DNA from: Cornus controversa
Taxonomy: Eukaryota; Streptophyta; Magnoliopsida; Cornales; Cornaceae
NCBI GenBank assembly: GCA_026545225.1
Contig: CM048845.1
Span: 107,830,533 to 107,894,532 of the forward strand
Reading direction: 5' to 3'
DNA length: 64,000 nucleotides
In this document: positions 1,776-64,000 of the stretch, one piece after another
Numbering within the stretch: position 1 is the stretch's first letter
Layout of the letters: the number at the start of each line of letters is the position of its first letter
Notes under the pieces: generated by a model
The model's database searches: none
What the model was told of the DNA's origin: nothing
The model's input: only the letters and a program-made list of their open reading frames with translations
Made by a program: the position numbers and the translations under genes

Positions 1776-2027
1776 ACTAATAATTTCACAAGTAGAATTC
1801 AAAAACAAGGTCAATAGAGCATACGGCGATAAACTTGTTGACTCTCTTAGACTCTTCGTTGGCCAAGAAATCTGTCTCAAATGCAGAGGCGCTTTGTCGT
1901 CGGAAACTTCGTTTGATTTCGGGCTTAATCTCCGGTGCCGTGGCGGTGGTGTCGCCATTGGAGTTCTTGGTAGAGAGAGAGATTTAAGTTTCATCGATGA
2001 ATCTGTCGCCCAAAGAACGAAAAACAT
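1776..2027 (-). other. Unrecognised short open frame, possible first exon
   Basis: A minus-strand frame of 84 codons lies in a patch with higher GC than its surroundings. It contains an internal ATG followed by a proline- and arginine-rich start (MATPPPRHRRLSP). An overlapping frame gives a stretch with a protein-like charge pattern (ETDFLANEESKRVNKF), but it has no ATG. TATA-like runs lie upstream at about 2059-2068. I do not recognise a family. It may be a 5' exon, a pseudogene piece or chance. Confidence 0.2.
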
Positions 2028-2039
2028 GTGAGAGAATAG

Positions 2040-3125
2040 TAGACTGTCAGCGATTGATCGTATATATATAGTTTAAAAATATAACCGTTAATCTAGCTTG
2101 AGGCCCACGCACACAGAACTCGTGAAAACTAAGGGTAAATCTGTACTTCTGTTGAGGTTTTGTGTTGATTAAACTTTTAAAAAAAATTGGTGAACAAAAA
2201 AATGGTCGATTAATCCCGTTAAATAGGTTTTTTTTTCCAGTAAATACCAATTTCACCGTTCTTGCATAAAAGACTTTAGTAGCCTTGTTCATTCTCCTAA
2301 AATTAGATTTTATGCTCCTTATTATAACATTTTCACCGAAACCTTGTTTTTGTTTTAAAGTGTTAAAAACTTCCATAAATTATGTCCAACTTTGTAAATA
2401 ACCACATAAACTATGTTTTGTACACAAAATCTTTTAAACTATGACATTTTGGTGCAAAATGCTGCTCATGCCTAGTTCTTTTTCATTAAATGACCATAAC
2501 ATATTTTCTTATTGAATTACACTTAATCTATTTTTTATTAAAATAGATAATTTAAAAAATTCATATTATTTTGCAGTACTCGACGGGTCTGACAGGGTGG
2601 TTAGTGTAAATTGATAAACAAGAGAAAAACACAACATATATTTACGATAGCTTAGGGATGTCAATATAATTTGACTTTCAAAAATCATGTGAGTATAGAA
2701 ATTTACTTCCATTAAAGGAAAGCTCCCTTCTACAAAAATTTTAGGATAAATATCACTAACATCCCCCAAAGGTTTGATGTATTGACATGCAATTACAACT
2801 TTGTGAATTTTCATCACTAACACTCTCTGTCAGCTTTTTCATTTTTTTAATATGTGAAATGTCTTGATTGTCTATGATTATTTAAATATATTTTAATATA
2901 AAAATATCATAAAAAAATGACCACAATACCCTTCTTGATTGTCATTTCAATTAATTTTTTATTTTATGTTAATATTATTATTTATGGAAATAAATAATTA
3001 TATATATTAGGTTATATTTATTATATTCTATATATATAGATGAATAGAGAAAAAGAAAGAAATTTAATTACTTTTTATTTATGTTAACATTATTATTTAT
3101 GAAAATAAATAATTATATATATAGG

Positions 3126-3161
<36 letters not shown>

Positions 3162-3252
3162 ATAATGTATATATATAGATTGATAGAGAAAAAGACACAG
3201 AAATTTAATTACTTTTTTATTTTATGTTAACATTATTATTTATGAAAATAAA

Positions 3253-3287
<35 letters not shown>

Positions 3288-39711: not shown

Positions 39712-42700
39712 TTGTTTTTGAAACAGAGGGGGTAATATGATGATTTAACATCATTATAATAATAGTAATAATATTAATTTTGAAAGGGGTAAAAAAATAT
39801 AGTTTTAAAAACATAGAGTAAGAAGATTTTGGAACATTGAGATAAAAAGATAAATTTTGAAAGAGGGAGTTGAATTTGAAGATATTTTAAAAGGGGAATA
39901 AAACTATAGATTTTCAATCAGGGAGTTACAACGAGGATTTCGCAACAAGGAGTTAAAACTATTATTGGATCTCTTTCTCGATAGTTTATGGGAGAAATTT
40001 TATATCCATAGGGGCATTGTTGACATTTTGGGCATATTGAGAGGTTGAGGGCCTTATTTGGTCCTTATTTTTGAAATTAGGAGGGGTAAAAGGATAACTT
40101 TGAATAGGGTGGTAAAAGATTGATTTTTAAACATTGAGGTAAAATGATGATTAGTTCTCTACTTTGATACATTTATGAGATAAATTGTACTTCCATTGGG
40201 GACATTTTTTAATTTTGGACAAATCGAGAAATTGAGGGCCCTATTCGGTCCTTGTTTTTGAAACAGAGAGGGGTAAATAGGATAACTTTGAACAAGGATG
40301 AAAAAGAATGATATTCAAACATTAGAACAGAGAGTACGATGTAGATTTTGCAAGAGGGAGTTAAAAATATCATTAGTTCTTTTTTTTGATAGGTTATGAG
40401 AAAAATTATAAATCCATGTTTGTAAAAATATCATAAGTTAAAAAAGAATGTTGGCATTTTTGACATATTGAGTGGTTGAGGGCTATCTTTGTTATTGAAA
40501 TAGAAGAGTAATAGAATGATTTGAATCGTTATAGTAAAAAGATCATAGAGAGGTTATCGGCCCTATTTGGTCTTTGTTTTTGAAATGCGGAGGGGTAATA
40601 GGTTGATATCAAATCGTTATGATAATAATAATATTAATTTCGAATGGAGTCTAAAAAAGATAGTTTTACAAACATAGAGTAAAAAGATTTTGGAACATTG
40701 AGATAAAAAGATAATTTTTGAAAGAGGGAGTTGAATTTGAAGGTATTTTAAACGGGGAATAAAACTATAGTTTTGCAAACACGGAGCAACAACAAGGATT
40801 TTGCAACACGGAGTTAAAACTATCATTGGAGCTTTTTTTTGATAGTTTAGGGGAGAAATTGTATATCCATGGGGACATTGTTGACATTTTGGGTTTATTG
40901 AGAAGTTGAGGGCCCTATTTGGTCCTTATTTTTGAAATTAGGAGGGGGTAAATGGATAACTCTGAATAGGGTGGTAAAAGAATAATTTTTAAACATTGAG
41001 GTAAAATGATGATTAGTTCTCATTTTTGATACATTTATGAGAGAAATTGTACATCCATTGGGGACATTTTTGAAATTTTGGACATATTGAGAAATTGAGG
41101 GCCCCATTCAGTAACAGAGAGGAGTAATAGGATAACGTTGAACAGGGATGTAAAAGCATGATATTCAAACATTAGAACAGAGAGTACGATGTATATTTTG
41201 CAATAGGGAGTTAAAACTATCAATAGTTTTCTTTTTTCATAGGTTATGAGAGAAATTATATATCCATGGGGGACATTGTTGGCATTTTGGACATATTGAG
41301 TGGTTGAGGGCTGTCTTTATTTTTGAAACAGAGGGATAATAGAATGATTTGAATTGTTATAGTAAAAAGATTATTGAGAGGTTGACGGCCCTATTCGGTC
41401 TTTGTTTTTGAAATGGGTAGGGGTAATAGGACGATTTAAAATCGTTAAAATAATAATAATATTAATTTTGAAAGGGGTCTAAAAACAATAGTTTTAAAAA
41501 CGTATAGTAAGAAGATTTTCGAACATTGAGATAAAAAGATAAATTTTGAAAGTGGGAGTTGAATTTGATGATATTTTAAACGGTTAATAAAACTATAGTT
41601 TTTCAAACAGGGCATTACAACGAGGATTTTGCAACAAGGAGTTAAAACTATCACTGAATCTCTTTTTTGATAGTTTATGGGAGAAATTTTATATTCATGG
41701 GGACATTGTTGACATTTTTGGCATATTGAGAAGTTAAGGGCCCTATTTGGTCCTTATTTTTTAAATGAGGATAAAAGGATAACTTTGAGTAGGGTGGCAA
41801 AAGAATGATTTTTAAACATCGAGGTAAAATGATGATTAGTTCTCTTCTTTGATACATTTATGAGAGAAATTGTTCATCCATTGGGGACATTATTGACATT
41901 TTGGACATAATGAGAAATTGAGGTCCTTATTCTTTGTTTTTGAAACAGAGAGGGGTAATAGGATAACTTTCTACAAGGTGGTAAAAGAATGAATTTGAAA
42001 CATTAAAACAGAGAGTTACGATGTAGATTTTGCAACAGGGAGTTAAAACTATCATTAGTTCACTTTTTTGATAGGTTATGAGAGAAATTATATATCCATG
42101 GGGGACATTGTTCGCATTTTGGACATATTGAGTGGATGAGGGCTGTCTTTGATTTTGAGACAGAGGGGTAATAGAATAATTTGAATCGTTATTGTAAAAA
42201 GATTATTGAGAGGTGGACGGCCCTATTTGGTTTTTGTTTTTGAAACGGGGAGAGGTCATAGGAAGATTTAAAATTGTTATAATAATAATAATATTAATTT
42301 TGAATGGGGTCTAAAAAAGATAGTTTTATAGACATAGAGTAAGAAGATTTTGGAACATTGAGATAAAAAGATAAATTTTGAAAGGAGTTGAATTTGAAGA
42401 TATTTCAAATAGGGAATAAAACTATAGTTTTTCAACCAGGGAGATACAACGAGGATTTTGAAACAAGGAGGTAAAACTATCATTGGATCTCTTTTTTGAT
42501 AGTTTATGGGAGAAATTGTATATCCATGGGGACATTGTTGACGTTTTGGAAAAATTTAAAAGTTGAGAGCCCTATTTGGTCATTATTTTTGAAATTAGGA
42601 GGGGTAAAAGGATAACTTTTAATAGGGTGGTAAAAGAATGGTTTTTAAATATTTAGGTAAAATGGTGATTAGTTCTTTTTTTTTGACACATTTATGAGAG

Positions 42701-44899
42701 ACATTGTACATCCATTGGGGACATTATTGACATTTTGGACATATTGAGAAATTGAGGGCCCGATTTGGTCTTTGTTTTTGAAACAAAGAGGGGTAGAAGG
42801 ATAACTTTGAGCAGGGTGGTAAAAGAATGATTTTGAAACATTAAAACAGAGTGTTATGATGAAGATTTTGCAAAAGGAAGTTCAAACTATCATTAGTTCT
42901 CTTTTTTGATAGGTTATGAGAGAAATTATATATCCATGGGGGACATTGTTGGCATTTTGGACATATTGAGTGGTTGAGGGCTGTCTTTGTTTTTGAAACA
43001 AAGGGGTAATAGAATGATTTGAATCATTATAGTAAAATGGTTATTGAGAGGTTGACGGCCCCATTTGGTCTTTGTTTTTGAAACGAGGAGGGGTAATAGG
43101 AAGATTTAAAATCGTTATAATAATAAAAATAGTAATAATTTGAATGGGATCTAAAAAAGATAGTTTTACAAACATAGAATAAGAAGATTTTGGAACATTG
43201 AGATAAAAAGATAAATTTTGAAAGTGGGAGTTGAATTTTGAAGATATTTTAAACAGGGAATAAAACTATAGTTTTTCATACAGGGAGCTACAACGAGGAT
43301 TTTGCAACAAGGAGTTAAAACTATCCTTGGATCTCTTTTTTGATAGTTTATGGGAGAAATTGTATATCCGTGGGGACATTGTTGACATTTTTGGCATATT
43401 GAGAGGTTGAGGGCCTTATTTGGTCCTTATTTTTGAAATTAGGAGGGGAACTTTCGATAGGGTTGTAAAAGAATGATTTTTAAACATTGAGGTAAAATGA
43501 TGATTAGTTCTCTTCTTTGATACATTTATGAGAGAAATTGTACATCCATTGGGGAAATTATTGACAGTTTCAACATATTGAGAAATTGAGGTCCCTATTC
43601 TGTAACAGAGAGGGGTAATAGGATAACTTTGAACAGGAATGTGAAAGAATGATATTCAAACACTAGAACAGAGAGTACGATGTAGATTTTGCAACAGGTA
43701 GTTCAAACTGTCTTTAGTTCTCTTTTTTGATAGACATTGTTGGCATTTTGGACATATTGAGTGGTTGAGGGTTGTCTTTGATTTTGAGACAGAGGGGTAA
43801 TAGAATAATTTGAATCGTTATTGTAAAAAGATTATTGAGAGGTGGACGGCCCAATTTGGTTTTTGTTTTTGAAACGGGGAGAGGTCATAAGGAAGATTTA
43901 AAATTGTTATAATAATAATAATAAATTTTGAATGGGGTCTAAATAAGATAGTTTTATAAACATGGAGTAAGAAGATTTTGGAACATTGAGATAAAAAGAT
44001 AAATTTTGAAAGGAGTTGAACTTGAAGATATTTCAAACGGGGAATAAAACTATAGTTTTTCAACCAGGGAGATACAATGAGGATTTTGAAACACGGAGGT
44101 AAAACTATCATTGGATCACTTTTTTGATAGTTTATGGGAGAAATTGTATATCCGTGGGGACATTGTTGACATTTTTGGCATATTGAGAGGTTGAGGGCCT
44201 TATTTGGTCCTTATTTTTGAAATTAGGAGGGGAACTTTCAATAGGGTTGTAAAAGAATGATTTTTAAACATTGGGGTAAAATGATGATTAGTTCTTTTTT
44301 TTTTATACATTTATGAGAGAAATTGTACATCCATTGGGGACATTATTGACATTTTGGACATATTGAGAAATTGAGGTCCCTATTCTGTAACAGATAGGGG
44401 TAATAGGATAACTTTGAATAGGAATGTGAGAGAATAATATTGAAACATTAGAACAGAGAGTACGATGTAGATTTTGCAACAGGGAGTTCAAACTGTCTTT
44501 AGTTCTCTTTTTTGATAGGTTATGAGAGAAATTATATATCCATGGGGGACATTGTTGGCATTTTGGACATATTGAGTGGTTGAGGGTAAAACTATCATTG
44601 GATCTCTTTTTTGATAGTTTATGGGAGAAATTGTATATCCATGGGGACATTGTTGACGTTTTGGGAAAATTTAGAAGTTGGGGGCCCTATTTGGTCCTTA
44701 TTTTTGAAATTAGGAGGGTGTTAAAGGATAACTTTGAATAGGGTGGTAAAACAATGATTTTTAAAATTTGAGGTAAAATGATGATTAGTTGTCATTTTTG
44801 ATACATTTATGAGAGAAATTGTACATCCATTGGGGACATTATTGAAATTTTGGACATATTGAGAAATTGAGAGTCCCATTCTGTAAATGAGAACTTGAC
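39712..44899. repeat. Complex satellite, A-B-C-D ~830-bp units, right block
   Basis: A subunits start at 40559, 41387, 42219, 43057 and 43848 (spacings 828, 832, 838, 791). In the 42219 unit the parts measure A 349, B 189, C 222 and D 78 bp. All four start with a version of GGCCCTATTTGGTC..TTGTTTTTGAAA, and A, B and C share the tail TTTTTTGATA, TTTATGAGAGAAATTGTA, CCATTGGGGACATT. They therefore look like diverged copies of one ~190-220-bp ancestral monomer, with A enlarged and D shortened. The block begins at about offset 16 of an A subunit, next to the outer LTR. The last unit is 1,052 bp and is a transition to the next block. Confidence 0.95.
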
Positions 44900-47800
44900 G
44901 GCCCTATTTGGTCTTTGTTTTTGAAACGTGTAGGGGTAATAGGATGATTTAAAATCGTTATAATAATAAAATTATTAATTTTGAATGGGACCAAAAAAAG
45001 ATAGTTTTAAAAACAGAGAGAAAGAAGATTTTGGAACATTGAGATAAACAGATAAATTTTGAAAGAGGGAGTCGAATTTGAAGATATTTAAACGGGAATA
45101 AAACTATAGTTTTTCAAACAGGGAGCTACAACGAAGATTTATTAACTCGGAATTAAAACTATCATTGGATCTCTTTTTTGATAGTTTATGGGATAAATTG
45201 TAGATCCATGGGGACATTGTGGACATTTTTGGCATATTGAGAAGTTGAGGGCCCGATTTGGTCCTTATTTTTGAAATTAGGAGGGTGTTAAAGGATAACT
45301 TTGAATAGGGTGGTAAAAGAATGATTTTTAAAATTTGAGGTAAAATGATGATTAGTTGTCATTTTTGATACATTTATGAGAGAAACTGTACATCCATTGG
45401 GGACATCATTGAAATTTTGGACATATTGAGAAATTGAGAGCCCTATTCTGTAAATGAGAACTTGACGGCCCTATTTGGTCTTTGTTTTTGAAACGTGTAG
45501 GGGTAATAGGATGATTTAAAATCGTTATTATAATAAAATTATTAATTTTGAATGGGACCAAAAAAAGATAGTTTTAAAAACATAGAGAAAGAAGATTTTG
45601 GAACATTGAGATAAACAGATAAATTTTGAAAGAGGGAGTCGAATTTGAAGATATTTTAAACGGGACTAAAGCTGTAGTTTTTCAAACAGGGAGCTACAAC
45701 GAGGACTTTGCAACTCGGAATTAAAACTATCATTGGATCTCTTTTTTGATAGTTTATGGGAGAAATTGTATATCCATGGCTACATTGTTGACAGTTTGGG
45801 CATATTGAGAGGTTCAGGGCCGATTTGGTCCTTATTTTTTGAATTAGGAGGGGTAAAAGGAAAACTTTGAATAGGGTGGTAAAAGAATGATTTTCAAATA
45901 TCGAGGTAAAATGATAATTAGTTCTCTTTTTTGATACATTTATGAGAGAAATTGTACATCCATTAGGGACATTATTGAAATTTTGGACATATTGAGAAAT
46001 TGAGATCCCTATTCGGTAACAGAGAACTTGACGGCCGTATTTGGTCTTTGTTTTTGAAACGTGTAGGGGTAATAGGATGATTTAAAATCGTTATGATAAT
46101 AATATTATTAATTTTGAATGGGGTCTAAAAAAGATAGTTTTAAAAACATAGAGCAAGAAGATTTTGGAACATTGAGATAAACGGAAAAATTTTGGAAGAG
46201 GGAGTCGAATTTGAATATATTTTAAACGGGACTAAAACTATAGCTTTTCAAACAGGGAGCTACAACGAGGATTTTGCAACTCGGAATTAAAACTATCATT
46301 GGATCTCTTTTTTGATAGTTTATGGGATAAATTGTATATCCATGGGGACATTGTTGACATTTTGGCATATTGAGAAGTTGAGGGCCCGATTTGGTCCATA
46401 TTTTTGAAATTAGGAGGGTGTTAAAGGATAACTTTGAATAAGGTGGTAAAAGAATGATTTTTAAAAATTGAGGTAAAATGATGACTTGTTGTCATTTTTG
46501 ATACATTTATGAGAGAAATTGTACATCCATTGGGGACATTATTGAAATTTTGGACATATTGAGAAATTGAGAGCCCTATTCTGTAAATGACAACATGACG
46601 GCCCTATTTGGTCTTTGTTTTTGAAACGTGTAGGGGTAATAGGATGATTTAAAATCGTTAGGATAATAATATTATTAATTTTGAATGGGGTCAAAAAAAG
46701 ATAGTTTTAAAAACATAGAGCAAGAAGATTTTGGAACATTGAGATAAACGGATAAATTTTGAAACAGGGAGTCGAATTTGAAGATATTTTAAACGGGACT
46801 AAAACTATAGTTTTTCAAACAGGGAGGTACAACGAGGATTTTGCAACTCGGAATGAAAACTATCATTGGATCTCTTTTTTGATAGTTTATGAGATAAATT
46901 GTATATCCATGGGGACATTGTTGACATTTTTGGCATATTGAGAAGTTGAGGGCCCGATTTGGTCCTTATTTTTGAAATTAGGAGGGTGTTAAAGGATAAC
47001 TTTGAATAGGGTGGTAAAAGAATGATTTTTAAAAATTGAGGTAAAATGATGATTTGTTGTCATTTTTGAAACATTTATGAGAGAAATTGTACATCCATTG
47101 GGGACATTACTTAAATTTCGGATATGTTGAGAAATTTAGAGCCCTATTCTGTAACATAGAACTTGACGGCCCTATTTGGTCTTTGATTTTGAAACGTGCA
47201 GGGGTAATAGGATGATTTAAAATCGTTATGATAATAATATTAGTAATTTTGAATGGGGTCTAAAAAAGATAGTTTTAAAAACATAGAGCAAGAAGATTTT
47301 GGAACATTGAGATAAACCGATAAATTTTGAAAGATGGAGTCGAATTTGAAGATATTTTAAACGGGAATAAAACTATAGTTTTTCCAACAGGGAGCTACAA
47401 CGAGGATTTTGCAACTCGGAATTAAAACTATCATTGGATCTCTTTTTTGATAGTTTATGGGAGAAATTGTATATCCATGGGGACATTGTTGACATTTTGG
47501 GCATATTGAGAAGTTGGGGGCCCAATTTTGTCCTTATTTTTGAAATTAGGAGGGTGTTAAAGGATAACTTTGAATAGAGTGGTAAAACAATGATTTTTAA
47601 AAATTGAGGTAAAATGTTGATTAGTTGTCATTTTCGATACATTTATGAGAGAAATTGTACATCCATTGGGGACATTATTGAAATTTTGGACATATTGAGA
47701 AATTGAGAGCCCTGTTCTATAAATGAGAACTTGACGGCCCTATTTAGTCTTTGCTTTTGAAACGTGTAGGGGTAATAGGATGATTTAAAATCGTTATAAT

Positions 47801-50800
47801 AATAATATTATTAATTTTGAATGGGGTCTAAAAAAGATAATTTTAAAAACATAGAGCAAGAAGATTTTGGAACATTGAGATAAACAGATAAATTTTGAAA
47901 GAGGGAGTCGAATTTGAAGATATTTAAACGGGAATAAAACTATAGTTTTTCAAACAGGGAGCTACAACGAAGATTTATTAACTCAGAATTAAAACTATCA
48001 TTGGATCCCTTTTTTGATAGTTTATGGGATAAATTGTATATCCATGGGGACATTGTTGACATTTTTGGCATATTGAGAAGTTGAGGGCCCGATTTGGTCC
48101 TTATTTTTGAAATTAGGAGGGTGTTAAAGGATAAGTTTGAATAGGGTGGTAAAAGAATGATTTTTAAAAATTGAGGTAAAATGTTGATTAGTTGTCATTT
48201 TTGATAAACTTATGAGGGAAATTGTACATCCATTGGGTACATTATTGAAATTTTGGACATATTGAGAAATTGAGAGCCCTATTCTGTAAGAAAGAACTTG
48301 ACGGCCCTATTTGGTCTTTGTTTTTGAAACGTGCAGGGGTAATAGGTTGACTTAAAATCGTTATAATAATAATATTACTAATTTTGAATGGGGTCTAAAA
48401 AAGATAGTTTTAAAAACATAGAGCAAGAAGATTTTGGAACATTGAGATAAATAGATAAATTTTAAAGAGGGAGTCGAATTTGATGATATTTTAAACGGGG
48501 AATAAAACTATAATTTTTCAAATAGGGAGCTACAACGAGGATTTTGCAACTCGGAATTAAAACTATCATTGGATCTCTTTTTTGATAGTTTATGGGAGAA
48601 ATTGAATATCCATGGGGGGACATTGTCGACATTTTGGGCATATTGAGAAGTTGAGGGCCCATTTTGGTCGTTATTTTTGAAATTAGGAGGGTGTTAAAGG
48701 ATAACTTTCAATAGGTTGGTAAAAGAATGATTTTTAAAAATTGAGGTAAAATGATGGTTAGTTGTCAGTTTTGATACATTTATGAGAGAGATTGTACATC
48801 CATTTGGGACATTGTTGATAGTTTATGGGAGAAATTTTATATCCACGGGGACAATGTTGACATTTTGGGCATATTGAGGACCCAATTTGGTCCTTATTTT
48901 TGAAATTAGGAGGGTGTTAAAGGATAACCTTGAATAGGGTGGTAAAAGAATGATTTTCAAATATCGAGGTAAAATGATGATTAGTTCTGTTTTTTGATAC
49001 GTTTATGGGAAAAATTGTACATCCATTGGGGACATTACTGAAATTTCGGAGATATTGAGAAATTGAGAGCCCTATTCTGTAACAGAGAACTTGACGGCTC
49101 TATTTGGTCTTTGTTTTTGAAACGTGTAGGGGTAATAGGATGATTTAAAATCGTTATGATAATAATATTATTAATTTTGAATGGGGTCTAAAAAAGATAA
49201 TTTTAAAAACATAGAGCAAGAAGATTTTGGAACATGGAGATAAACGAAAAAATTTTGAAAGAGGGAGTCGAATTTGAAGATATTTTAAACGGGAATAAAA
49301 CTATAGTTTTTCAAACAGGGAGTTACAACGAGGATTTTGCAACTCGGAATTAAAACTATCATTGGATCTCTTTTTTGATAGTTTATGGGAGAAATTGTAT
49401 ATCCATGGGGAAATTGTTGACATTTTTGGCATATTGAGAAGTTGAGGACCCAATTTGGTCCTTATTTTTGAAATTAGGAAGGTGTTAAAGGATAACTTTG
49501 AATAGGGTGGTAAAATAATGATTTTTAAAAATTGAGGTAAAATGATGATTAGTTGTCATTTTTGATACATTTATGAGAGAAATTGCACAACCATTAGGGA
49601 CATTATTGAAATTTTGGACATGTTGAGAAATTGAGAGCCCTATTTGGTCTTTGTTTTTGAAACGTGTTGGGGTAATAGGATGATTTAAAATCGTTATTAT
49701 AATAATATTATTAATTTTGAATGGGGTCTAAAAAAGATGGTTTTAAAACCATAGAGCATGAAGATTTTGGAATATTGCGATAAACGGATAAATTTTGAAA
49801 GAGGGAGTCGAATTTGAAGATATTTTAAACGGGAATAAAACTATAGTTTTTCAAATAGGGAGCTACAACGAGGATTTTGCAACTCGGAATTAAAACTATC
49901 ATTGGATCTCTTTTTTGATAGTTTATGGGAGAAATTGAATATCCATGGGGACATTGTCGACATTTTGGGCATATTGAGAAGTTAAGGGCCCAATTTGGTC
50001 CCTATTTTTTAAAGTAGGAGGGTGTTAAAGGATAACTTTGAATAGGGTGGTAAAATAATGATTTTTAAAAATTGAGGTAAAATGATGATTAGTTGTCAGT
50101 TTTGATACATTTATGAGAGAGATTGTACATCCATTTGGGACATTGTTGATACATTTATGAGAGAGATTGTACATCCATTTGGGACATTGTTGATAGTTTA
50201 TGGGAGAAATTGTATATCCATGGGACAATGTTGACATTTTGGGCATATTGAGGGCCTAATTTGGTCCTTATTTTTGAAATTAGGAGGGTGTTAAAGGATA
50301 ACTTTGAATAGGGTGGTAAAAGAATGATTTTCAAATATCGAGGTAAAATGACGATTAGTTCTGTTTTTTGATACATTTATGAGAGAAATTGTACATGCAT
50401 TGTGGACATTACTGAAATTTTGGAAAAATTGAGAGCCCTATTCTGTAACAGAGAACTTCACGACCCTATTTGGTCTTTGTTTTTGAAATGTGTAGGGGTA
50501 ATAGGATGATTTAAAATCGTTATAATAATAATATTACTTATTTTGAATGGGGTCTAAAAAAGATAGTTTTAAAAACATAGAGAAAGAAGATTTTTGAACA
50601 TTGAGATAAATAGATAAATTTTAAAGAGGGAGTCGAATTTGAAGATATTTTAAACGGGGAATAAAACTATATTTTTTCAAATAGGGAGCTACAACGAGGA
50701 TTTTGCAACTCGGAATTAAAACTATCATTGGATCTCTTTTTTGATAGTTTATGGGAGAAATTTTATATCCATGGCGACATTGTTGACAGTTTGGGCATAT

Positions 50801-53800
50801 TGAGAGGTTGAGGGCCGATTTCGTCCTTTTTTTTGGAACTAGGAGGGGTAAAAGGAAAACTTTGAATTGGGTGGTAAAAGAATGATTTTCAAATATCGAG
50901 GTAACATGATGATTAGTTCTTTTTTTGATACATTTATGAGAGAAATTGTACATCCATTGGGGACATTATTGAAATTTTGAAAATATTGAGAAATTGAGAG
51001 CCCTATTCGGTAACAGAGAACTTGACGGCCCTATTTGGTCTTTGTTTTCGAAACGTGTAGGGGTAATAGGACGATTTAAAATCGTTATGATAATAATATT
51101 ATTAATTTTGAATGGGGTCTAAAAAAGATAGTTTTAAAAACATAGAGCAAGAAGATTTTGGAACATTGAGATAAACGGATAAATTTTGAAAGATGGAGTC
51201 AAATTTGAAGATATTTTAAACGGGAATAAAACTATAGTTTTTCAAACAGGGAGCTACAACGAGGATTTTGTAACTCGGAATTAAAACTATCATTGGATCT
51301 CTTTTTTGATAGTTTATGGGAGAAATTGTATATCCATGGGGACATTGTTGACATTTTGGGCATATTGAGAGGTTGAGGGCCGATTTGGTCCTTATTTTCG
51401 AAATTAGGAGGGGTAAAACGATAAACTTTGAATAGGGTGGTAAAAGAATGATTTTCAAATATCGAGGTAACATGATGATTAGTTCTGTTTTTTGATACAT
51501 TTACGAGAGAAATTGTACATCCATTGGGGACATTACTGAAATTTTGGACATATTGAGAAATTGAGAGCCCTATTTGGTAACAGAGAATTAGACGACCCTA
51601 TTTGGTATTTATTTTTGAAACGTGTAGGGGTAATAGGATGACTTAAAATCGTTATGATAATAATATTATTAATTTTGAATGGGGTCTAAAAAAGATAGTT
51701 TTAAAAACATAGAGCAAGAAGATTTTGGAACATTGAGATAAACCGATAAATTTTGAAAGATGGAGTCGAATTTGAAGATATTTTCAACGGGAATAAAACT
51801 ATAGTTTTTCAACCCGGGAGCTACAACGAGGATTTTGCAACTCGGAATTAAAACTATCATTGGATCTCTTTTTTGATAGTTTATGGGAGAAATTGTATAT
51901 CCATGGAGAAATTGATGACATTTTAGGCATATCGAGAAGTTGAGGGACCAATTTTGTCCTTATTTTTGAAATTAGGAAGGTGTTAAAGGATAACTTTGAA
52001 TAGGGTGGTAAAAGAATGATTTTTAAAAATTGAGGTAAAATGATGATTAGCTGTCATTTTTGATACATTTATGAGAGAAATTGTACATCCATTGGGGACA
52101 TTATTCAAATTTTGGACATATTGAGAAATTGAGAGCCCTATTCTGTAACAGAGAACTTGACGGCCCTATTTGGTCTTTGTTTTTGAAACGTGTATGGGTA
52201 ATAGGATGATTTGAAATCGTTATAATAATAATATTATTAATTTTGAATGGGGTCTAAAAAGGATAGTTTTAAAAACATAGAGCAAGAAGATTTTGGAACA
52301 TTGAGATAAACAGATAAATTTTGAAAGAGGGAGTCGAATTTGAAGATATTTTAAACGGGAATAAAACTATAGTTTTTCAAACAGGGAGTTACAACGAGGA
52401 TTTTGCAACTCGGAATTAAAACTATCATTGGATCTCTTTTTTGATAGTTTATGGGAGAAATTGTATATCCATGGGGAAATTGTTGACATTTTTGGCATAT
52501 TGAGAAGTTGAGGACCCAATTTGGTCCTTATTTTTGAATTAGGAAGGTGTTAAAGGATAACTTTGAATAGGGTGGTAAAATAATGATTTTTAAAAATTGA
52601 GGTAAAATGATGATTAGTTGTCATTTTTGATACATTTATGAGAGAAATTGCACAACCATTAGGGACATTATTGAAATTTTGGACATGTTGAGAAATTGAG
52701 AGCCCTATTCGGTAACAGAGAACTTGACGACCCTATTTGGTCTTTGTTTTTGAAACGTGTTGGGGTAATAGGATGATTTAAAATCGTTATTATAATAATA
52801 TTATTAATTTTGAATGGGGTCTAAAAAAGATAGTTTTAAAACCATAGAGCATGAAGATTTTGGAATATTGCGATAAACGGATAAATTTTGAAAGAGGGAG
52901 TCGAATTTGAAGATATTTTAAACGGGAATAAAACTATAGTTTTGCAAATAGGGAGCTACAACGAGGATTTTGCAACTCGGAATTAAAACTATCATTGGAT
53001 CTCTTTTTTGATAGTTTATGGGAGAAATTGAATATCCATGGGGACATTGTCGACATTTTGGGCATATTGAGAAGTTAAGGGCCCAATTTGGTCCCTATTT
53101 TTTGAAGTAGGAGGGTGTTAAAGGATAACTTTGAATAGGGTGGTAAAATAATGATTTTTAAAAATTGAGGTAAAATGATGATTAGTTGTCAGTTTTGATA
53201 CATTTATGAGAGAGATTGTACATCCATTTGGGACATTGTTGATAGTTTATGGGAGAAATTGTATATCCATGGGACAATGTTGACATTTTGGGCATATTGA
53301 GGGCCTAATTTGGTCCTTATTTTTGAAATTAGGAGGGTGTTAAAGGATAACTTTGAATAGGGTGGTAAAAGAATGATTTTCAAATATCAAGGTAAAATGA
53401 CGATTAGTTCTGTTTTTTGATACATTTATGAGAGAAATTGTACATGCATTGTGGACATTACTGAAATTTTGGAAAAATTGAGAGCCCTATTCTGTAACAG
53501 AGAACTTCACGACCCTATTTGGTCTTTGTTTTTGAAATGTGTAGGGGTAATAGGATGATTTAAAATCGTTATTATAATAATATTATTAATTTTGAATGGG
53601 GTCTAAAAAAGATAGTTTTAAAACCATAGAGCATGAAGATTTTGGAATATTGCGATAAACGGATAAATTTTGAAAGAGGGAGTCGAATTTGAAGATATTT
53701 TAAACGGGAATAAAACTATAGTTTTTCAAATAGGGAGCTACAACGAGGATTTTGCAACTCGGAATTAAAACTATCATTGGATCTCTTTTTTGATAGTTTA

Positions 53801-56800
53801 TGGGAGAAATTGAATATCCATGGGGATATTGTCGACATTTTGGGCATATTGAGAAGTTAAGGGCCCAATTTGGTCCCTATTTTTTAAAGTAGGAGGGTGT
53901 TAAAGGATAACTTTGAATAGGGTGGTAAAATAATGATTTTTAAAAATTGAGGTAAAATGATGATTAGTTGTCAGTTTTGATACATTTATGAGAGAGATTG
54001 TACATCCATTTGGGACATTGTTGATAGTTTATGGGAGAAATTGTATATCCATGGGACAATGTTGACATTTTGGGCATATTGAGGGCCTAATTTGGTCCTT
54101 ATTTTGGAAATTACGAGGGTGTTAAAGGATAACTTTGAATAGGGTGGTAAAAGAATGATTTTTAAAAATTGAGGTAAAATGATGATTAGCTGTCATTTTT
54201 GATACATTTATGAGAGAAATTGTACATCCATTGGGGACATTATTCAAATTTTGGACATATTGAGAAATTGAGAGCCCTATTCTGTAACAGAGAACTTGAC
54301 GGCCCTATTTGGTCTTTGTTTTTGAAACGTGTATGGGTAATAGGATGATTTGAAATCGTTATAATAATAATATTATTAATTTTGAATGGGGTCTAAAAAG
54401 GATAGTTTTAAAAACATAGAGCAAGAAGATTTTGGAACATTGAGATAAACAGATAAATTTTGAAAGAGGGAGTCGAATTTGAAGATATTTTAAACGGGGA
54501 TAAAACTATAGTTTTTCCAACAGGGAGCTACAACGAGGATTTTGCAACTCGGAATTAAAACTATCATTGGATCTCTTTTCTGATAGTTTATGGGAGAAAT
54601 TGTATATCCATGGGGACATTGTTGACATTTTGGGCATATTGAGAAGTTGAGGGCCCAATTTGGTCCTTATTTTTGAAATTAGGAGGGTGTTAAAGGATAA
54701 CTTTGAATAGGGTGGTAAAAGAATGATTTTTAAAAATTGAGGTAAAATGATGATTTGTTGTCATTTTTGATACATTTATGAGAGAAATTGTACATCCATT
54801 GGGGACATTACTGAAATTTTGGACATATTGAGAAATTGAGAGCCCTATTCGGTAACGGAGAACTTGACGGCCCTATTTGGTCTTTGTTTTTGAAATGTGT
54901 AGGGGTAATAGGATGATTTAAAATCGTTATGATAAAAATATTATTAATTTTGAATGAGGTCTAAAAAAGATAGTTTTAAAAACACAGAGCAAGAATATTT
55001 TGGAACATTGAGATAAACAGAAAAATTTTGAAAGAGGGAGTCGAATTTGAAGATATTTTAAACGGGACTAAAACTATAGTTTTTCAAACAGGGAGGTACA
55101 ACGAGGATTTTGCAACTCGGAATTAAAACTATCATTGGATCTCTTTTTTGATAGTTTATGGGATAAATTGTATATCCATGGGGACATTGTTGACATTTTT
55201 GCATATTGAGAAGTTGAGGGCCCGATTTGGTCCTTATTTTTGAAATTAGGAGGGTGTTAAAGGATAACTTTGAATAGGGTGGTAAAAGAATGGTTTTCAA
55301 ATATCGAGGTAAAATGATGATTAGTTCTGTTTTTTGATACATTTATGAGAGAAAGTGTACATCCATTGGGGACATTATTGAAATTTTGGACATATTGAGA
55401 AATTTAGAGCCCTATTTGGTAAATGAGAACTTGACGACCCAATTTGGTCTTTGTTTTTGAAACGTGTAGGGGTAATAGGATGATTTAAAATCGTTATTAT
55501 AATAAAATTATTAATTTTGAATGGGACCAAAAAAAGATAGTTTTAAAAACATAGAGAAAGAAGATTTTGGAACATTGAGATAAACAGATAAATTTTGAAA
55601 GAGGGAGTCGAATTTGAAGATATTTTAAACGGGACTAAAACTATACTTTTTCAAACAGGGAGCTACAACGAGGATTTTGCAACTCGGAATTAAAACTATC
55701 ATGGATCTCTTTTTTGATAGTTTATGGGAGAAATTGTACATCCATGGCGACATTGTTGACAGTTTGGGCAAATTGAGAGGTTGAGGGCCGATTTGGTCCT
55801 TATTTTTGGAATTAGGAGGGGTAAAAGGAAAACTTTGAATAGGGGGGTAAAAGGAAAACTTTGAATGGGTGGTAAAAGAATGATTTTTAAAAATTGAGGA
55901 AAAATGATTATTAGTTGTCGTTTTTGATACATTTATAAGAGAAATTGTACATCCATTGGGGACATTATTGAAATTTTGGGCATATTGAGAAATTGAGAGC
56001 CCTATTCTGTAACAGAGAACTTGACGGCCCTATTTGGTCTTTGTTTTTGAAACGTGCAGGGGTAATAGGTTGACTTAAAATCGTTATAATAATAATATTA
56101 CTAATTTTGAATGGGGTCTAAAAAAGATAGTTTTAAAAACATAGAGCAAGAAGATTTTGGAACATTGAGATAAACGGATAAATTTTGGAAGAGGGAGTCG
56201 AATTTGAAGATATTTTAAACGGGACTAAAACTATAGTTTTTCAAACAGGGAACTACAACGAGGATTTTGCAACTCGGAATTAAAACTATCATTGGATCTC
56301 TTTTTTGATAGTTTATGGGAGAAATTGTATATCCATGGGGACATTGTTGACATTTTTGGCATATTGAGAAGTTGAGGGCCCGATTTGGTCCTTATTTTTG
56401 GAATTAGGAGGGGTTAGAGGAAATCTTTGAATAGGGTGGTAAAAGAATGATTTTCAAATATCGAGGTAACATGATGATTAGTTCTCTTTTATGATACATT
56501 TATGAGAGAAATTGTACACCCATTGGGGACATTACTGAAATTTTGGACATATTGAGAAATTGAGAGCCCTATTCGGTAACAGAGAACTTGACGACCCTAT
56601 TTGGTCTTTGTTTTTGAAACGTGTAGGGGTAATAGAATGATTTAAAATCGTTATTATAATAATATTATTAATTTTGAATGGGGTCTAAAAAAGATAGTTT
56701 TAAAAACATAGAGAAAGAAGATTTTGGAACATTGAGATAAACGGATAAATTTTGAACGAGGGAGTCGAATTTGAAGATATTCTCAACGGGAATAAAACTA

Positions 56801-59800
56801 TAGTTTTTCAACCAGGGAGCTACAACGAGGATTTTGCAACTCGGAATTAAAACTATCAATGGATCTCTTTTATGATAGTTTATGAGAGAAATTGTATATC
56901 CATGGAGAAATTGATGACATTTTGGGCATATTGAGAAGTTGAGGGACCAATTTTGTCCTTATTTTTTAAATTAGGAAGGTGTTAAAGGATTACTTTGAAT
57001 AGGGTGGTAAAAGAATGATTTTTAAAAATTGAGGTAAAATGATGATTAGTTGTCATTTTTGATACATTTATGAGAGAAATTGTACATCCATTGGGGACAT
57101 TATTCAAATTTTGGACATATTGAGAAATTGAGAGCCCTATTCTGTAACAGAGAACTTGACGGCCCTATTTGGTCTTTGTTTTTGAAACGTGTATGGGTAA
57201 TAGGATGATTTGAAATCGTTATAATAATAATATTATTAATTTTGAATGGGGTCTAAAAAGGATAGTTTTAAAAACATAGAGCAAGAAGATTTTGGAACAT
57301 TGAGATAAACAGATAAATTTTGAAAGAGGGAGTCGAATTTGAAGATATTTTAAACGGGGATAAAACTATAGTTTTTCCAACAGGGAGCTACAACGAGGAT
57401 TTTGCAAGTCGGAAATAAACTATCATTGGATATCTTTTTTGATACTTTATGGGAGAAATTGTATATCCATGGGGACATTGTTGACATTTTGGGCATATTG
57501 AGAAGTTGAGGGCCCAATTTGGTCCTTATTTTTGAAATTAGGAGGGTGTTAAAGGATAACTTTGAATAGGGTGGTAAAATAATGATTTTTAAAAATTGAG
57601 GTAAAATGATTATTAGTTGTCATTTTTGATACATTTATGAGAGAAATTGTACATACATTGGGGACATTATTGAAATTTTGGGCATACTGAGAAATTGAGA
57701 GCCCTATTCTGTAACAGAGAACTTGACGACCCTATTTGGTCTTTGTTTTTGAAACGTGTAGGAATAATTGGATGATTTAAAATTGTAATAATAATATTAT
57801 TATTAATTTTGAATGGGGACTAAAAAAGATAGTTTTAAAAACATAGGGCAAGAAGATTTCTGAACATTGAGATAAACAGATAAATTTTGAAAGAGGGAGT
57901 CGAATTTGAAGATATTTTAAACGGGACTAAAAGTATAGTTTTTCAAACAGGGAGGTACAACGAGGATTTTGCAACTCGGAATGAAAACTATCATTGGATC
58001 TCTTTTTTGATAGTTTATGAGATAAATTGTATATCCATGGGGACATTGTTGACATTTTTGGCATATTGAGAAGGTGAGGGCCCGATTTGGTCCTTATTTT
58101 TGAAATTAGGAGGGTGTTAAAGGATAACTTTGAATAGGGAGGTAAAAGAATGATTTTTAAAAATTGAGGTAAAATGATCATTTTTGTCATTTTTGATACA
58201 TTTATGAGAGAAATTGTACATCCATTGGGGACATTACTGAAATTTTGGATATGTTGAGAAATTTAGAGCCCTATTCTGTAACATAGAACTTGACGGCCCT
58301 ATTTGGTCTTTGTTTTTGAAACGTGTAGGGGTAATAGGATGATTTAAAATCGTTATAATAATAATATTACTTATTTTGAATGGGGTCTAAAAAAGATAGT
58401 TTTAAAAACATATAGCAAGAAGATTTTGGAGCATTGAGATAAATAGATAAATTTTAAAGAGGGAGTCGAATTTGAAGATATTTTAAACAGGGAATAAAAC
58501 TATATTTTTTCAAATAGGGAGCTACAACGAGGATTTTGCAACTCGGAATTAAAACTATCATTGGATCTCTTTTTTGATAGTTTATGGGAGAAATTGTATA
58601 TCCATGGCGACATTGTTGACAGTTTGGGCATATTGAGAGGATGAGGGCCGATTTGGTCCTTATTTTTGAAATTAGGAGGGGTAAAAGGAAAACTTTGAAT
58701 TGGGTGGTAAAAGAATGATTTTCAAATATCGAGGTAACATGATGATTAGTTCTCTTTTTTGATACATTTATGAGAGAAATTGTACATCCATTAGGGACAT
58801 TATTAAAATTTTGGACATATTGAGAAATTGAGAACCCTTTTCTGTAAATGAGAACTTGACGGCCCTATTTGGTCTTTGTTTTTGAAACGTGTAGGGGTAA
58901 TAGGATGATTTAAAATCGTTATTATAATAAAATTATTAATTTTGAATGGGACCAAAAAAAGATAGTTTTAAAAACATAGAGAAAGAAGATTTTGGAACAT
59001 TGAGATAAACAGATAAATTTTGAAAGAGGGAGTCGAATTTGAAGATATTTTAAACGGGACTAAAACTATACTTTTTCAAACAGGGAGCTACAACGAGGAT
59101 TTTGCAACTCGGAATTAAAACTATCATTGGATCTCTTTTTTGATAGTTTATGGGAGAAGTTGTATATCCATGGCGACATTGTTGACAGTTTGGGCAAATT
59201 GAGAGGTTGAGGGCCGATTTGGTCCGTATTTTTGGAATTTGGAGGCGTAAAAGGAAAACTTTGAATTGGGTGGTAAAAGAATGATTTTCAAGTATCGAGG
59301 TAACATGATGATTAGTTCTCTTTTTTTATACATTTATGAGAGAAATTGGACATCCATTGAGGACATTATTGAAATTTTGGACATGTTGAGAAATTTAGAG
59401 CCATATTCTGTAACAGAGAACTTGACGGCCCTATTTGGTCTTTGTTTTTGAAAGGTGCAGGGGTAATAGGTTGACTTAAAATCGTTATAATAATAATATT
59501 ACTAATTTTGAATGGGGTCTAAAAAAGATAGTTTTAAAAACATAGAGCAAGAAGATTTTGGAACATTGAGATAAATAGATAAATTTTAAAGAGGGAGTCG
59601 AATTTGATGATATTTTAAACGGGGAATAAAACTATAAATTTTCAAATAGTGAGCTACAACGAGGATTTTGCAACTCGGAATTAAAACTATCATTGGATCT
59701 CTTTTTTGATAGTTTATGGGAGAAATTGAATATCCATGGGGGGACATTGTCGACATTTTGGGCATATTGAGAAGTTGAGGGCCCATTTTGGTCGTTATTT

Positions 59801-62800
59801 TTGAAATTAGGAGGGTGTTAAAGGATAACTTTCAATAGGTTGGTAAAAGAATGATTTTTAAAAATTGAGGTAAAATGATGGTTAGTTGTCAGTTTTGATA
59901 CATTTATGAGAGAGATTGTACATCCATTTGGGACATTGTTGATAGTTTATGGGAGAAATTTTATATCCATGGGGACATTGTCGACATTTTGGGCATATTG
60001 AGGGCCCAATTTGGTCCTTATTTTTGAAATTAGGAGGGTGTTAAAGGATAACTTTGAATAGGGTGGTAAAAGAATGATTTTCAAATATCGAGGTAAAATG
60101 ATGATTAGTTCTGTTTTTTGATACGTTTATGGGAGAAATTGTACATCCATTGGGGACATTACTGAAATTTCGGAGATATTGAGAAATTGAGAGCCCTATT
60201 CTGTAACAGAGAACTTGACGGCCCTTTTTGGTCTTTGTTTTTGAAACGTGTAGGGGTAATAGGATGATTTAAAATCGTTATGATAATAATATTATTAATT
60301 TTGAATGGGGTCTAAAAAGGATAGTTTTAAAAACATAGAGCAAGAGGATTTTGGAACATTGAGATAAACGGATAAATTTTGAAAGAGGGAGTCGAATTTG
60401 AAGATATTTTAAACGGGAATAAAACTATAGTTTTTCAAACAGGGAGCTAGAACGAGGATTTTGCAACTCGGAATTAAAACTATCATTGGATCTCTTTTTT
60501 GATAGTTTACGGGAGAAATTGTATATCCATGGGGAAATTGTTGACATTTTGGGCATATTGAGAAGTTGAGGGACCAATTTGGTCCTTATTTTTGAAATTA
60601 GGAGGGTGTTAAAGGATAACTTTGAATAGGGTGATAAAATAATGATTTTTCAAAATTGAGGTAAAATGATGATTAGTTGTTATTTTTGATACATTTACGA
60701 GAGAAATTGCACAACCATTAGGGACATTATTGAAATTTTGGACATATTAAGAAATTGAGAGTCCTATTCTGTAAATGAGAACTTGACGGCCCTATTTGGT
60801 CTTTGTTTTTGAAACGTGTAGGGGTAATAGGATGATTTAAAATCGTGATAATAATAATATTATTAATTTTGAATGGGGTCTAAAAAAATAGTTTTAAAAA
60901 CATAGAGCAAGAAGATTTTGGAACATTGAGATAAAAAGATAAATTTTGAAAGAGGGAGTCGAATTTGAAGATATTTAAACGGGAATAAAACTATAATTTT
61001 TCAAACAGGGAGCTACAACGAAGATTTCGCAACTCGGAATTAAAACTATCATTGGATCTCTTTTTTGATATTTTATGGGATAAATTGTATATCCATGGGG
61101 ACATTGTTGACATTTTTGGCATATTGAGAAGTTGAGGGCCCGATTTGGTCCTTATTTTTGAAATTAGGAGGGTGTTAAAGGATAACTTTGAATAGGGTGG
61201 TAAAAGAATGGTTTTCAAATATCGAGGTAAAATGATGATTAGTTCTGTTTTTTGATACATTTATGAGAGAAATTGTACATCCATTGGGGACATTATTGAA
61301 ATTTTGGACATATTGAGAAATTTAGAGCCCTATTTGGTAAATGAGAACTTGACGGCCCAATTTGGTCTTTGTTTTTGAAACGTGTAGGGGTAATAGGATG
61401 ATTTAAAATCGTTATTATAATAAAATTATTAATTTTGAATGGGACCAAAAAAAGATAGTTTTAAAAACATAGAGAAAGAAGATTTTGGAACATTGAGATA
61501 AACAGATAAATTTTGAAAGAGGGAGTCGAATTTGAAGATATTTTAAACGGGACTAAAACTATACTTTTTCAAACAGGGAGCTACAACGAGGATTTTGCAA
61601 CTCGGAATTAAAACTATCATTGGATCTCTTTTTTGATCGTTTATGGGAGAAATTGTATATCCATGGCGACATTGTTGACAGTTTGGGCAAATTGAGAGGT
61701 TGAGGGCCGATTTGGTCCTTATTTTTGGAATTAGGAGGGGTAAAAGGAAAACTTTGAATAGGGTGGTAAAAGAATGATTTTTAAAAATTGAGGTAAAATG
61801 ATTATTAGTTGTCGTTTTTGATACATTTATGAGAGAAATTGTACATCCATTGGGGACATTATTGAAATTTTGGGCATATTGAGAAATTGAGAGCCCTATT
61901 CTGTAACAGAGAACTTGACGACCCTATTTGGTCTTTGCTTTTGAAACGTGGAGGGATAATTGGATGATTTAAAATTGTTATAATAATAATATTATTAATT
62001 TTGAATGGGGTCTAAAACAAATAGTTTTAAAAACATAGAGCAAGAAGATTTATGAACATTGAGATAAACAGATAAATTTTGAAAGAGGGAGTCGAATTTG
62101 AAGATATTTTGAACGGGGAATAAAACTATACTTTTTCAAACGGGGAGCTACAACGAGGATTTTGCAACTCAAAATTAAAACTATCATTGGATCTCTTTTT
62201 TGATAGTTTATGGGAGAAATTGTATATCCATGGGGACATTGTTGACATTTTGGGCATATTGAGAGGTTGAGGCCCGATTTGGTCCTGATTTTTGGAATTA
62301 GGAGGGGTAAAAGGAAAACTTTGAATAGGGTGGTAAAAGAATGATTTTCAAATATCGAGGTAAAATGATGATTAGTTCTCTTTTTTGATACATAAATGAG
62401 AGAAATTGTACATCCATTGGGGACATTACTGAGATTTTGGACATATTGAGAAATTGAGAGCCATATTCGGTAACAGAGAACTTGACGGCCCTATTTGGTC
62501 TTTGTTTTTGAAACGTGTAGGGGTAATAGGATGATTGAAAATCGTTATGATAATAATATTATTAATTTTGAATGGGGTCTAAAAAGGATAGTTTTAAAAA
62601 CATAGAGCAAGAGGATTTTGGAACATTGAGATAAACGGATAAATTTTGAAAGAGGGAGTCGAATTTGAAGATATTTTAAACGGAAATAAAACTATAGTTT
62701 TTCAAACAGGGAGCTAGAACGAGGATTTTGCAACTCGGAATTAAAACTATCATTGGATCTCTTTTTTGATAGTTTACGGGAGAAATTGTATATCCATGGG

Positions 62801-64000
62801 GAAATTGTTGACATTTTGGGCATATTGAGAAGTTGAGGGACCAATTTGGTCCTTATTTTTGAAATTAGGAGGGTGTTAAAGGATAACTTTGAATAGGGTG
62901 GTAAAATAATGATTTTTAAAAATTGAGGTAAAATGATGATTAGTTGTAATTTTTGATACATTTATGAGAGAGATTGTACATCCATTGGGGACATTATTGA
63001 TAGTTTATGGGAGAAATTGTATATCCATGGGGACATTGTTGAAATTTTGGGCATATTAAGAGGTAGAGGCCCGATTTGGTCCTTATTTTTGGAATTAGGA
63101 GGGGTAAAAGGAAAACTTTGAATAGGGTGGTAAAAGAATGATTTTCAAATATTGAGGTAAAATGATGATTAGTTCTCCTTTTTGATACATTTATGAGAGA
63201 AATTGTACATCCATTGGGGACATTATTGAAATTTTAGACATATTGAGAAATTGAGAGCCCTATTCTATAACGGAGAACTTGACGGCCCTATTTGGTCTTT
63301 GTTTTTGAAACGTGTAGGGGTATTAGGATGATTTAAAATTGTTATTATAATAATATTATTAATTTTGAATGGGATCTAAAAAAGATAATTTTAAAAACAT
63401 AGAGGAAGAAGATTTTGGAACATTGAGATAAACAGATAAATTTTGAAAGAGGGAGTCGAATTTGAAGATATTTTAAAAGGAAATAAAACTATAGTTTTTC
63501 AAACATGGAGCTACAACGAGGATTTTGCAACTCGGAATTAAAACTATCATTGGATCTCTTTTTTGATAGTTTATGGGAGAAATTGTATATCCATGGGGAC
63601 ATTGTTGACAGTTTGGGCATATTGAGAAGTTGAGGGCCCAATTTGGTCCTTATTTTTGAAATTAGGAGGGTGTTAAAGGATAACTTTGAATATGATGGTG
63701 AAAGAATGATTTTTAAAAATTGAGGTAAAATGATGATTAGTTGTTATTTTTGATACATTTATGAGAGAAATTGTACATCCATTGGGGACATTATTGAAAT
63801 TTTGGACATTATGAGAAATTGAGAGCCCTATTCTGTAACAGAGAACTTGACAGCCCTATTTGGTCTTTGTTTTTGAAACGTGTAGGGGTAATAGGATGAT
63901 TTAAAATCGTTATAATAATAATATTATTAATTTTGAATGGGGTCTAAAAAAGATAGTTTTAAAAACATAGAGCAAGAAGATTTTGGAACATTGAGATAAA
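44900..64000. repeat. Complex satellite, A-B 566-568-bp units with ~790-bp variants
   Basis: From 44900 the A header recurs at 45467, 46033, 46600, 47168, 47736, 48303, then 49096 (793 bp later), 49636, 50461, 51027, 51594, 52162, 52729, 53511, 54301, 54869, 55436, 56026, 56593, 57161, 57728, 58295, 58861, 59427, 60220, 60788, 61354, 61920, 62487, 63284 and 63852. Most steps are 566-568 bp. C and D have been lost; A carries an AATAATAATATTATTAATTT core and B the TTGGTCCTTATTTTTGAAATTAGG header. The array continues beyond the window. Short frames recurring in step with the unit are by-products of the repeat. Confidence 0.97.

What the first reader, a model, noticed from the sequence alone, without database searches (positions are those of the whole stretch)
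39712..64000. Satellite that switches from an ~830-bp A-B-C-D unit to a 567-bp A-B unit within one array
The left and right parts share A and B but differ in higher-order structure: four parts near the retrotransposon nest, two parts with very regular 566-568-bp spacing after 44.9 kb. All four parts share the same header, so the array preserves the growth of a simple monomer into a composite unit and its later contraction. I do not recognise this family and cannot tell whether it has been described.
Basis: seen in the sequence. Interest (0 to 1): 0.7.

Follow-up and report, generated by a model that had tools for sequence, protein, structure and literature searches.

The report
LINE-born plant satellite, shrinking composite repeat
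A stretch of tandemly repeated plant DNA really does switch from a long repeat unit to a shorter one, and sister arrays on the same chromosome indicate that the short unit arose once, by one internal deletion, in a repeat that partly comes from the tail end of a jumping gene.

Summary
The array is real. It runs 39712-68079, past the window edge, and also fills 23394-25388. Left units are ~830-840 bp and right units 567 bp, but the anatomy differs from the finding.

The 567-bp unit is A + front of B + D. It is the 840-bp unit minus one ~270-bp segment, with the same junction in 31 of 32 places. In a tree of 55 units the 32 of 567 type form one group (100/99.6).

The array's right edge keeps ~354-bp monomers. 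A, B, C and D are truncated pieces of them, C+D being one monomer with an 86-bp internal duplication. Up to 126 bp of the monomer matches the 3' end of dispersed LINE-type elements. Much of the rest is ~27-bp sub-repeats.

In this 772-Mb genome the satellite forms seven blocks on one chromosome, all in one orientation, each beside a copy of the same flanking sequence. It was copied within a segmental-duplication module. The 567 junction was placed only in the three blocks whose flanks also group together (91/93); 27 of 153 matches could not be placed.

Growth then contraction is supported. The kind is known: TE-derived satellite, higher-order repeats, old array edges.

The parts
23394..25388 (+). 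satellite, 840-type units, cut off from the main array by retrotransposon insertions
   Evidence: decode (consensus 557->51 without a jump); BLAST coverage
25389..39711 (.). retrotransposon nest between two satellite pieces (Ty1/copia gag, Pol_BBD, rve and RVT_2 frames at 33283-37564, + strand)
   Evidence: satellite phase differs on the two sides (consensus 51 and 576), so it is not one simple insertion
39712..44586 (+). 840-type satellite units A-B-C-D with small rearrangements (30-bp filler at 40419; jump at 43733)
44587..44883 (+). transition piece (consensus 484 -> 817 jump, then A and front of B)
44884..64000 (+). 567-type units: A + 5' part of B fused to D, common junction GTAACAGAGA/ACTTGACGGCCC with variants; satellite continues beyond the window to 68079
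48812..49079 (+). example of an extra ~229 bp (44 bp of B, then A again); further jumps of this kind at 50187, 53236, 54018, 59936 and 62997
   Evidence: TRF periods 43 and 222-229
1..3285 (+). copy 6 of the flanking sequence found beside the satellite blocks; 1-19483 matches 70452-~81800 right of the array in the same order, in pieces of 67-94% identity
41041..44400 (+). stretch in which three 840-type units (B at about 41102, 43593 and 44378) carry the shortened B on which the 567 deletion is nested

Best explanation
This is a low-copy, single-chromosome plant satellite of mixed origin. About 95-126 bp of a LINE 3' end, fused to ~27-bp minisatellite repeats, became a ~354-bp tandem monomer (sequence match shown; order of events inferred). 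Three neighbouring monomers, two shortened by internal deletions (A, B) and one carrying an 86-bp internal duplication (C+D), were amplified together as an 840-bp composite unit. The array with its neighbouring DNA was copied to seven places on one chromosome by segmental duplication. In the common ancestor of three of these copies, one deletion between B and D removed ~270 bp. The 567-bp product was amplified (153 junction matches) and later re-duplicated and trimmed into 796-bp, 371-bp and 2.3-kb higher-order units. The driving process is most likely replication slippage or unequal exchange inside the array, with array edges rarely taking part (inferred). No function is needed to explain it.
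For: 567 units are one side of a branch, 32 rows against 23, support 100/99.6. The junction pattern gives 153 forward and 0 reverse matches. The 100 listed lie at C1:107645715-107804887 and 26 more in the window. Exact matches in the window are missing from that list while earlier 2-mismatch ones are in it, so it runs by position and C1 holds none before 107645715. Samples of blocks 1, 3 and 4 also hold none. A, D and the edge monomer keep the stretch that short-B lost; short-B occurs at 97.6 and 107.53 Mb; the 567 junction sits on it. Edge monomer against A 167/181, B 197/220, C 130/141, D 260/282. LINE match 80% over 126 bp, E 5e-27, in a copy with zf-RVT, E 3.5e-16. Seven flank copies, all + strand, each beside a block. 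Flank tree groups the three 567 blocks at 91/93. Edge satellite is 97.3-98.5% identical between blocks, like the spacer; 840-type interior units of different blocks differ by 8.8-12.0%.
Against: The flank grouping is moderate (91/93, below the tool's 95/80 mark) and rests on 1-3% divergence. The tree is unrooted and holds 55 units from eight stretches; units with a jump inside the compared stretch were left out and not counted. 38 of 160 and 27 of 153 pattern matches lie beyond the listed range and could not be placed. Patterns with few mismatches would miss diverged copies on other chromosomes. The AC at the junction matches neither parent exactly, so the microhomology reading is loose. The reading frame that overlaps the monomer match has no Pfam hit itself. 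The LINE copy number was not obtained.
Confidence: 0.85

Rival explanations
1. Reverse direction: the 567-bp unit is the older one, and 840-bp units arose by insertion of the B-tail plus C segment.
For: No outgroup species roots the unit tree. One block, 107.645-107.70 Mb, has 567-type units and no listed C-block match.
Against: The C-block was found in six of seven blocks and the 567 junction in three. The B front in 567 units is the shortened form, while A, D and the edge monomer keep the full stretch. Insertion would have to restore paralogous sequence exactly.
Confidence: 0.06
2. The 567 deletion happened several times independently by recurrent recombination between B and D.
For: Other jumps recur, such as A/D fusions giving 371-bp units, and one window unit has a different B/D junction.
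Against: One junction in 31 of 32 places, and a single group at 100/99.6 on columns away from the junction.
Confidence: 0.04
3. The seven blocks arose by independent insertion of satellite circles or by transposition, not by segmental duplication.
For: Satellites can spread as extrachromosomal circles (recalled); blocks lie up to 27 Mb apart; left flanks were not read.
Against: All blocks have one orientation, similar monomer-header layouts at the right edge and the same flank about 2.3-2.4 kb further in the six blocks read.
Confidence: 0.04
4. The unit switch is an assembly artefact.
For: Tandem arrays are prone to collapse; no reads could be seen.
Against: Most sampled units differ from each other by several percent (group means 6-12%; three pairs were identical), which helps placement, and the junction recurs in three separate blocks.
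Confidence: 0.03

Closest known systems
Plant satellites grown from tandem repeats inside retrotransposons (Lathyrus sativus FabTR repeats from Ogre 3' regions, PMC7004042; passages read)
   Same: A satellite tied to the 3' region of a retrotransposon that expanded into longer arrays
   Different: Here the source is a LINE-type (non-LTR) 3' end fused to a 27-bp minisatellite, and spread was by segmental duplication on one chromosome
LINE-derived satellites in general (named as a class in the review PMC12628747; passages read)
   Same: Review names untranslated regions of LINEs as one source of satellite DNA
   Different: Here the match lies mostly over the end of the reading frame seen in L042, and covers only about a third of the monomer
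Human alpha-satellite higher-order repeats with older monomers at array edges (recalled)
   Same: Composite units in the interior and more diverged simple monomers at the edge
   Different: Not shown to be centromeric; low copy; one chromosome; monomers unequal in length because of internal deletions

Membership tests
satellite DNA | long head-to-tail arrays of tens of kilobases | tested here: met
   28 kb at 39712-68079; further blocks on C1
satellite DNA | late-replicating or heterochromatic location | not testable with these tools
   no chromatin data
higher-order repeat satellite | multi-monomer unit that repeats as a whole | tested here: met
   840 unit of three monomers; 1615-bp and 2306-bp repeats in the 5-kb samples L032 and L029
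LINE-derived satellite | monomer homologous to a dispersed LINE, beyond chance | tested here: met
   E 5e-27, 7e-25 and 1e-22 for three dispersed places; alignment scores 68-75 against at most 24 in 200 shuffles each; zf-RVT E 3.5e-16 in L040, weak (0.011) in L042; L041 was not scanned for domains
LINE-derived satellite | whole monomer derived from the LINE | tested here: not met
   95-126 of 354 bp match; much of the rest is 27-bp repeats
segmental duplication | same non-satellite flank beside each copy | tested here: met
   seven C1 copies, 91-97% to the query besides the query itself; shared right edge
segmental duplication | same flank on the left side too | not tested
centromeric satellite | CENH3 association | not testable with these tools
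   no ChIP data; seven blocks over 27 Mb of one chromosome and a PPR reading frame ~9 kb from the array argue against
a named published satellite | sequence match | not testable with these tools
   no plant satellite database on hand; six paper-search listings showed no such family, but none could use the sequence

The most novel reading that the evidence does not exclude
Seven satellite arrays copied together with the same flank form a natural replicate experiment. Their right edges behave like single-copy DNA (97-98.5% identical over aligned bases) while their interiors were rebuilt into different higher-order units. Within the 567 lineage, recombination is stepping back towards single-monomer length (840 to 567 to 371 bp). 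Satellite units may therefore build up and contract in cycles whose rate can be read against the flank.
Probability: 0.5. Interest if true: 0.6.

Novelty: new member of a known kind. Interest (0 to 1): 0.5.

Why it matters
Satellite evolution is usually inferred from the present mix of repeats without a clock. Here one family shows part of its source (a LINE end), its simple ancestor (edge monomers), a composite stage and a single contraction. Seven copies sharing a flank would allow rates of unit gain, loss and homogenisation to be measured.

Tried and rejected
Considered: 567 unit as A-B (rejected); recurrent deletion (rejected); a genome-wide dispersed satellite (the C-block, at up to 3 mismatches in 83, gave 35 forward, 0 reverse, all listed, all on C1; more diverged copies would be missed); an origin from the LINE fragment right of the array from 68080 (no match to the monomer header); diverged satellite beside the C2 copies of the flank (none found beside 2 of 5 copies, about 5.7 kb beyond each). 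The test for NB-LRR paralogues near the blocks was asked three times, never answered and dropped. For the monomer consensus four of eleven header-to-header pieces were used (322, 354, 375, 352 bp); left out were 220, 430, 347, 162, 989, 294 and 131 bp, by a length and start filter. The LINE family's copy number was asked eight times without answer. Six paper searches showed no description of this family in their listings; none could use its sequence. The species was not identified.

Full report
WHERE IT IS. The window is C1:107830533-107894532 of an unnamed 771.7-Mb genome in 61 contigs. Its copia, NB-LRR and PPR reading frames point to a plant (inference). C1 is 129.1 Mb.

OBSERVATION. k-mer distances at 39.7-44.9 kb peak at 786, 1628, 830 and 1671; at 44.9-52 kb at 566, 1134 and 1701; 566 also leads in the two later stretches, beside other peaks such as 2138 and 1725. 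I made an 840-bp consensus from seven window units and decoded the array with a model that allows jumps between consensus positions. The array covers 39712-68079, the last 4 kb being in L009. A separate piece lies at 23394-25388. BLAST found no more satellite up to the end of the fetched stretch, some 196 kb further.

THE SWITCH. Up to 44586 the units run through the consensus with few jumps. From 44884 on, 31 jumps lead from consensus 270-273 to 541-545, and one further place has a variant, 260 to 561. The 567-bp unit is therefore A, the first ~87-100 bp of B, and D; the rest of B and C are gone. The common junction reads GTAACAGAGA/ACTTGACGGCCC. B has CAGAGAGGGG and D has TTGAGAGGTTGACGG at this place, so a short shared GAGA is a likely meeting point, but the AC in the product matches neither parent. 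Six units carry an extra ~229 bp, 44 bp of B followed by A again.

WHAT A-D ARE. A, B and C align to each other from the first header base; D aligns to C only from C position 60. The edge at 64104-68079 is more diverged (83-87% to the consensus, against 92-95% elsewhere). Eleven headers were found there; four header-to-header pieces of 322, 354, 375 and 352 bp passed my filter, seven of other lengths (131-989 bp) did not. The consensus of the four, 354 bp, aligns to A (167 of 181 aligned bases identical), B (197 of 220), C (130 of 141, monomer positions 1-150) and D (260 of 282, positions 64-354). All four scores far exceed 40 shuffles each. The 840 unit is thus three monomers: A and B with internal deletions, and C+D with an 86-bp duplication. 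The 567 unit is two: A and a B/D hybrid of about full length. A 371-bp unit in L029 is one A/D hybrid.

SUB-REPEATS. The consensus holds 11 matches to a 20-base core TTTTGAAACAGGGAGTAAAA with at most 5 mismatches, spaced 23-29 bp in the D tail, against a mean of 0.065 and a maximum of 1 in 200 shuffles. The core was chosen after looking, so the size of the effect, not the exact figure, is the evidence.

SOURCE OF THE HEADER. A monomer-header pattern (up to 3 mismatches) matched 106 times forward and 7 times reverse, control 0 and 0; 100 of 113 places are listed. 97 of these lie in the C1 blocks and three elsewhere: C6:40798190, C9:38851592 and C1:1666130, all on the - strand. These three were fetched. 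The monomer matches them over 126 bp at 80% (E 5e-27), 95 bp at 86% (7e-25) and 120 bp at 77.5% (1e-22). L040 encodes a zf-RVT domain some 170 bp upstream of the match (E 3.5e-16); L042 has a weak one (0.011) and matches L040 at 88.5% over 1143 bp. L041 shares only about 270 bp with the other two. In L042 the match lies mostly over the end of a reading frame, which has no Pfam hit itself. The LINE piece right of the array, from 68080 (RVT_1, E 9.9e-12), does not share the header.

GENOME DISTRIBUTION. A D-tail pattern: 160 forward, 0 reverse; the 100 listed lie on C1, 22 are in the window and 38 are unplaced. A shorter pattern: 432 forward, 16 reverse, controls 16 and 28. The C-block, 83 bases with up to 3 mismatches: 35 forward, 0 reverse, all listed, all on C1, in six of the seven blocks (none at 107.645-107.70 Mb). 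The 567 junction: 153 forward, 0 reverse; 100 listed between 107645715 and 107804887, 26 in the window, 27 unplaced. Exact matches in the window are absent from that list while earlier 2-mismatch places are present, so lists run by position, and the unplaced 27 lie beyond 107804887. The 5-kb samples of blocks 1, 3 and 4 hold no junction. Blocks lie at about 80.69, 97.50, 97.60, 107.52, 107.645, 107.777 and 107.854 Mb.

THE MODULE. Window 1-19483 matches 70452-~81800 right of the array in the same order, in pieces of 67-94% identity. The flank 70452-73750 has seven C1 copies including itself, the others at 91-97%, all on the + strand, at 80725971, 97561265, 97646031, 107602614, 107704950, 107830533 and 107900984, one right of each block. 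Five weaker copies (75-82%, - strand) lie on C2 at 31.98-32.11 Mb; beside two of them no satellite was found in about 5.7 kb. Satellite ends about 2.3-2.4 kb left of the flank in the six blocks whose right edges were read, and monomer headers sit at similar distances from it in all seven, with some headers missing from the pattern's list in blocks 1, 5, 6 and 7. Edge satellite in blocks 1-5 is 97.3-98.5% identical to block 7 over 313-600 aligned bases, gaps aside (block 7 lacks about 60 bp), and the spacer 97.7-98.5%. Monomer-type headers also occur at the left ends of blocks 1, 2 and 6, not read.

HISTORY. In a tree of 55 units (536 columns, the stretch common to both unit types, without the junction) the 32 units of 567 type form one side of a branch, support 100/99.6. 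The 23 others include three with a jump or block end on one side. None of the seven window 840 units falls with the 567 units, and one lies in an 80.7-Mb group (100/98), 27 Mb away. Mean differences: within 567 groups 0-7%, within 840 groups 6-9%, between 840 groups of different blocks 8.8-12.0%, between 567 and 840 groups 9.5-11.5%, between 567 units of blocks 5 and 7 6.6-7.4%. The flank tree (7 rows, 2357 columns) groups blocks 5, 6 and 7, the ones with the junction, at 91/93, and the two 97-Mb blocks at 99/98; pairwise differences 1.1-3.2%. A shortened B was seen at 97.6 Mb (2 of 3 units the script found), 107.53 Mb (6 of 6) and in 3 of 8 window 840 units, not in the 3 found at 80.7 Mb; the 567 junction sits on it. 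The likely order is long B, short B, 567. The samples have their own higher-order patterns: an extra 178-bp C copy at 80.7, uniform units without jumps at 97.6, 1615 bp (two units) at 107.53, and 2306 bp (four units) at 107.685.

MECHANISM. Shown: one main junction, one group, nested variants, edges alike and interiors different, shared right flank. Inferred: slippage or unequal exchange as the process, and LINE end plus minisatellite as the starting fusion. At commonly used plant rates (recalled) 1-3% flank difference means roughly one to a few million years.

NOVELTY. Satellites from retrotransposon 3' regions are described in Lathyrus (PMC7004042, passages read), and LINE untranslated regions are named as satellite sources in a review (PMC12628747, passages read). 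Of the banana paper PMC2956553 I read passages only; its 'derived from LINE' concerns a probe. The family itself was in none of the six listings seen, but no sequence database of plant satellites could be searched.

Noticed in passing
window 1-19483 and window coordinate 70452-~81800 (L009-L010): Segmental duplication on both sides of the satellite block; the right copy holds a 721-aa PPR-DYW reading frame (L010:3318-5480), while the left copy has no reading frame of 180 aa or more there.
   Followed up: partly
C2:31977755-32106244: Five copies of part of the flank (75-82% identity, - strand) within 130 kb, without satellite beside the two examined.
   Followed up: partly
window 10519-12436 (-): NB-LRR disease-resistance gene fragments (winged helix, NB-ARC, LRR) in separate frames; 10519-11955 were scanned.
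   Followed up: no
window 31023-31404: A 186-bp sequence duplicated head to tail with 99.5-100% identity inside the retrotransposon nest.
   Followed up: no
window 40001-64000: Strong and even strand bias of the satellite: GC skew +0.39 to +0.48 in each 2-kb step.
   Followed up: no
window coordinate ~88009-88173 (L011): Another piece resembling the LINE 3' end (73% over 167 bp) lies 20 kb right of the array, with a weak match to the satellite header (E 2e-7).
   Followed up: no
L022:5509-6321 and L023:1385-2818: Leucine-rich repeat frames, the second with part of a protein kinase domain, about 131-137 kb right of the array.
   Followed up: no
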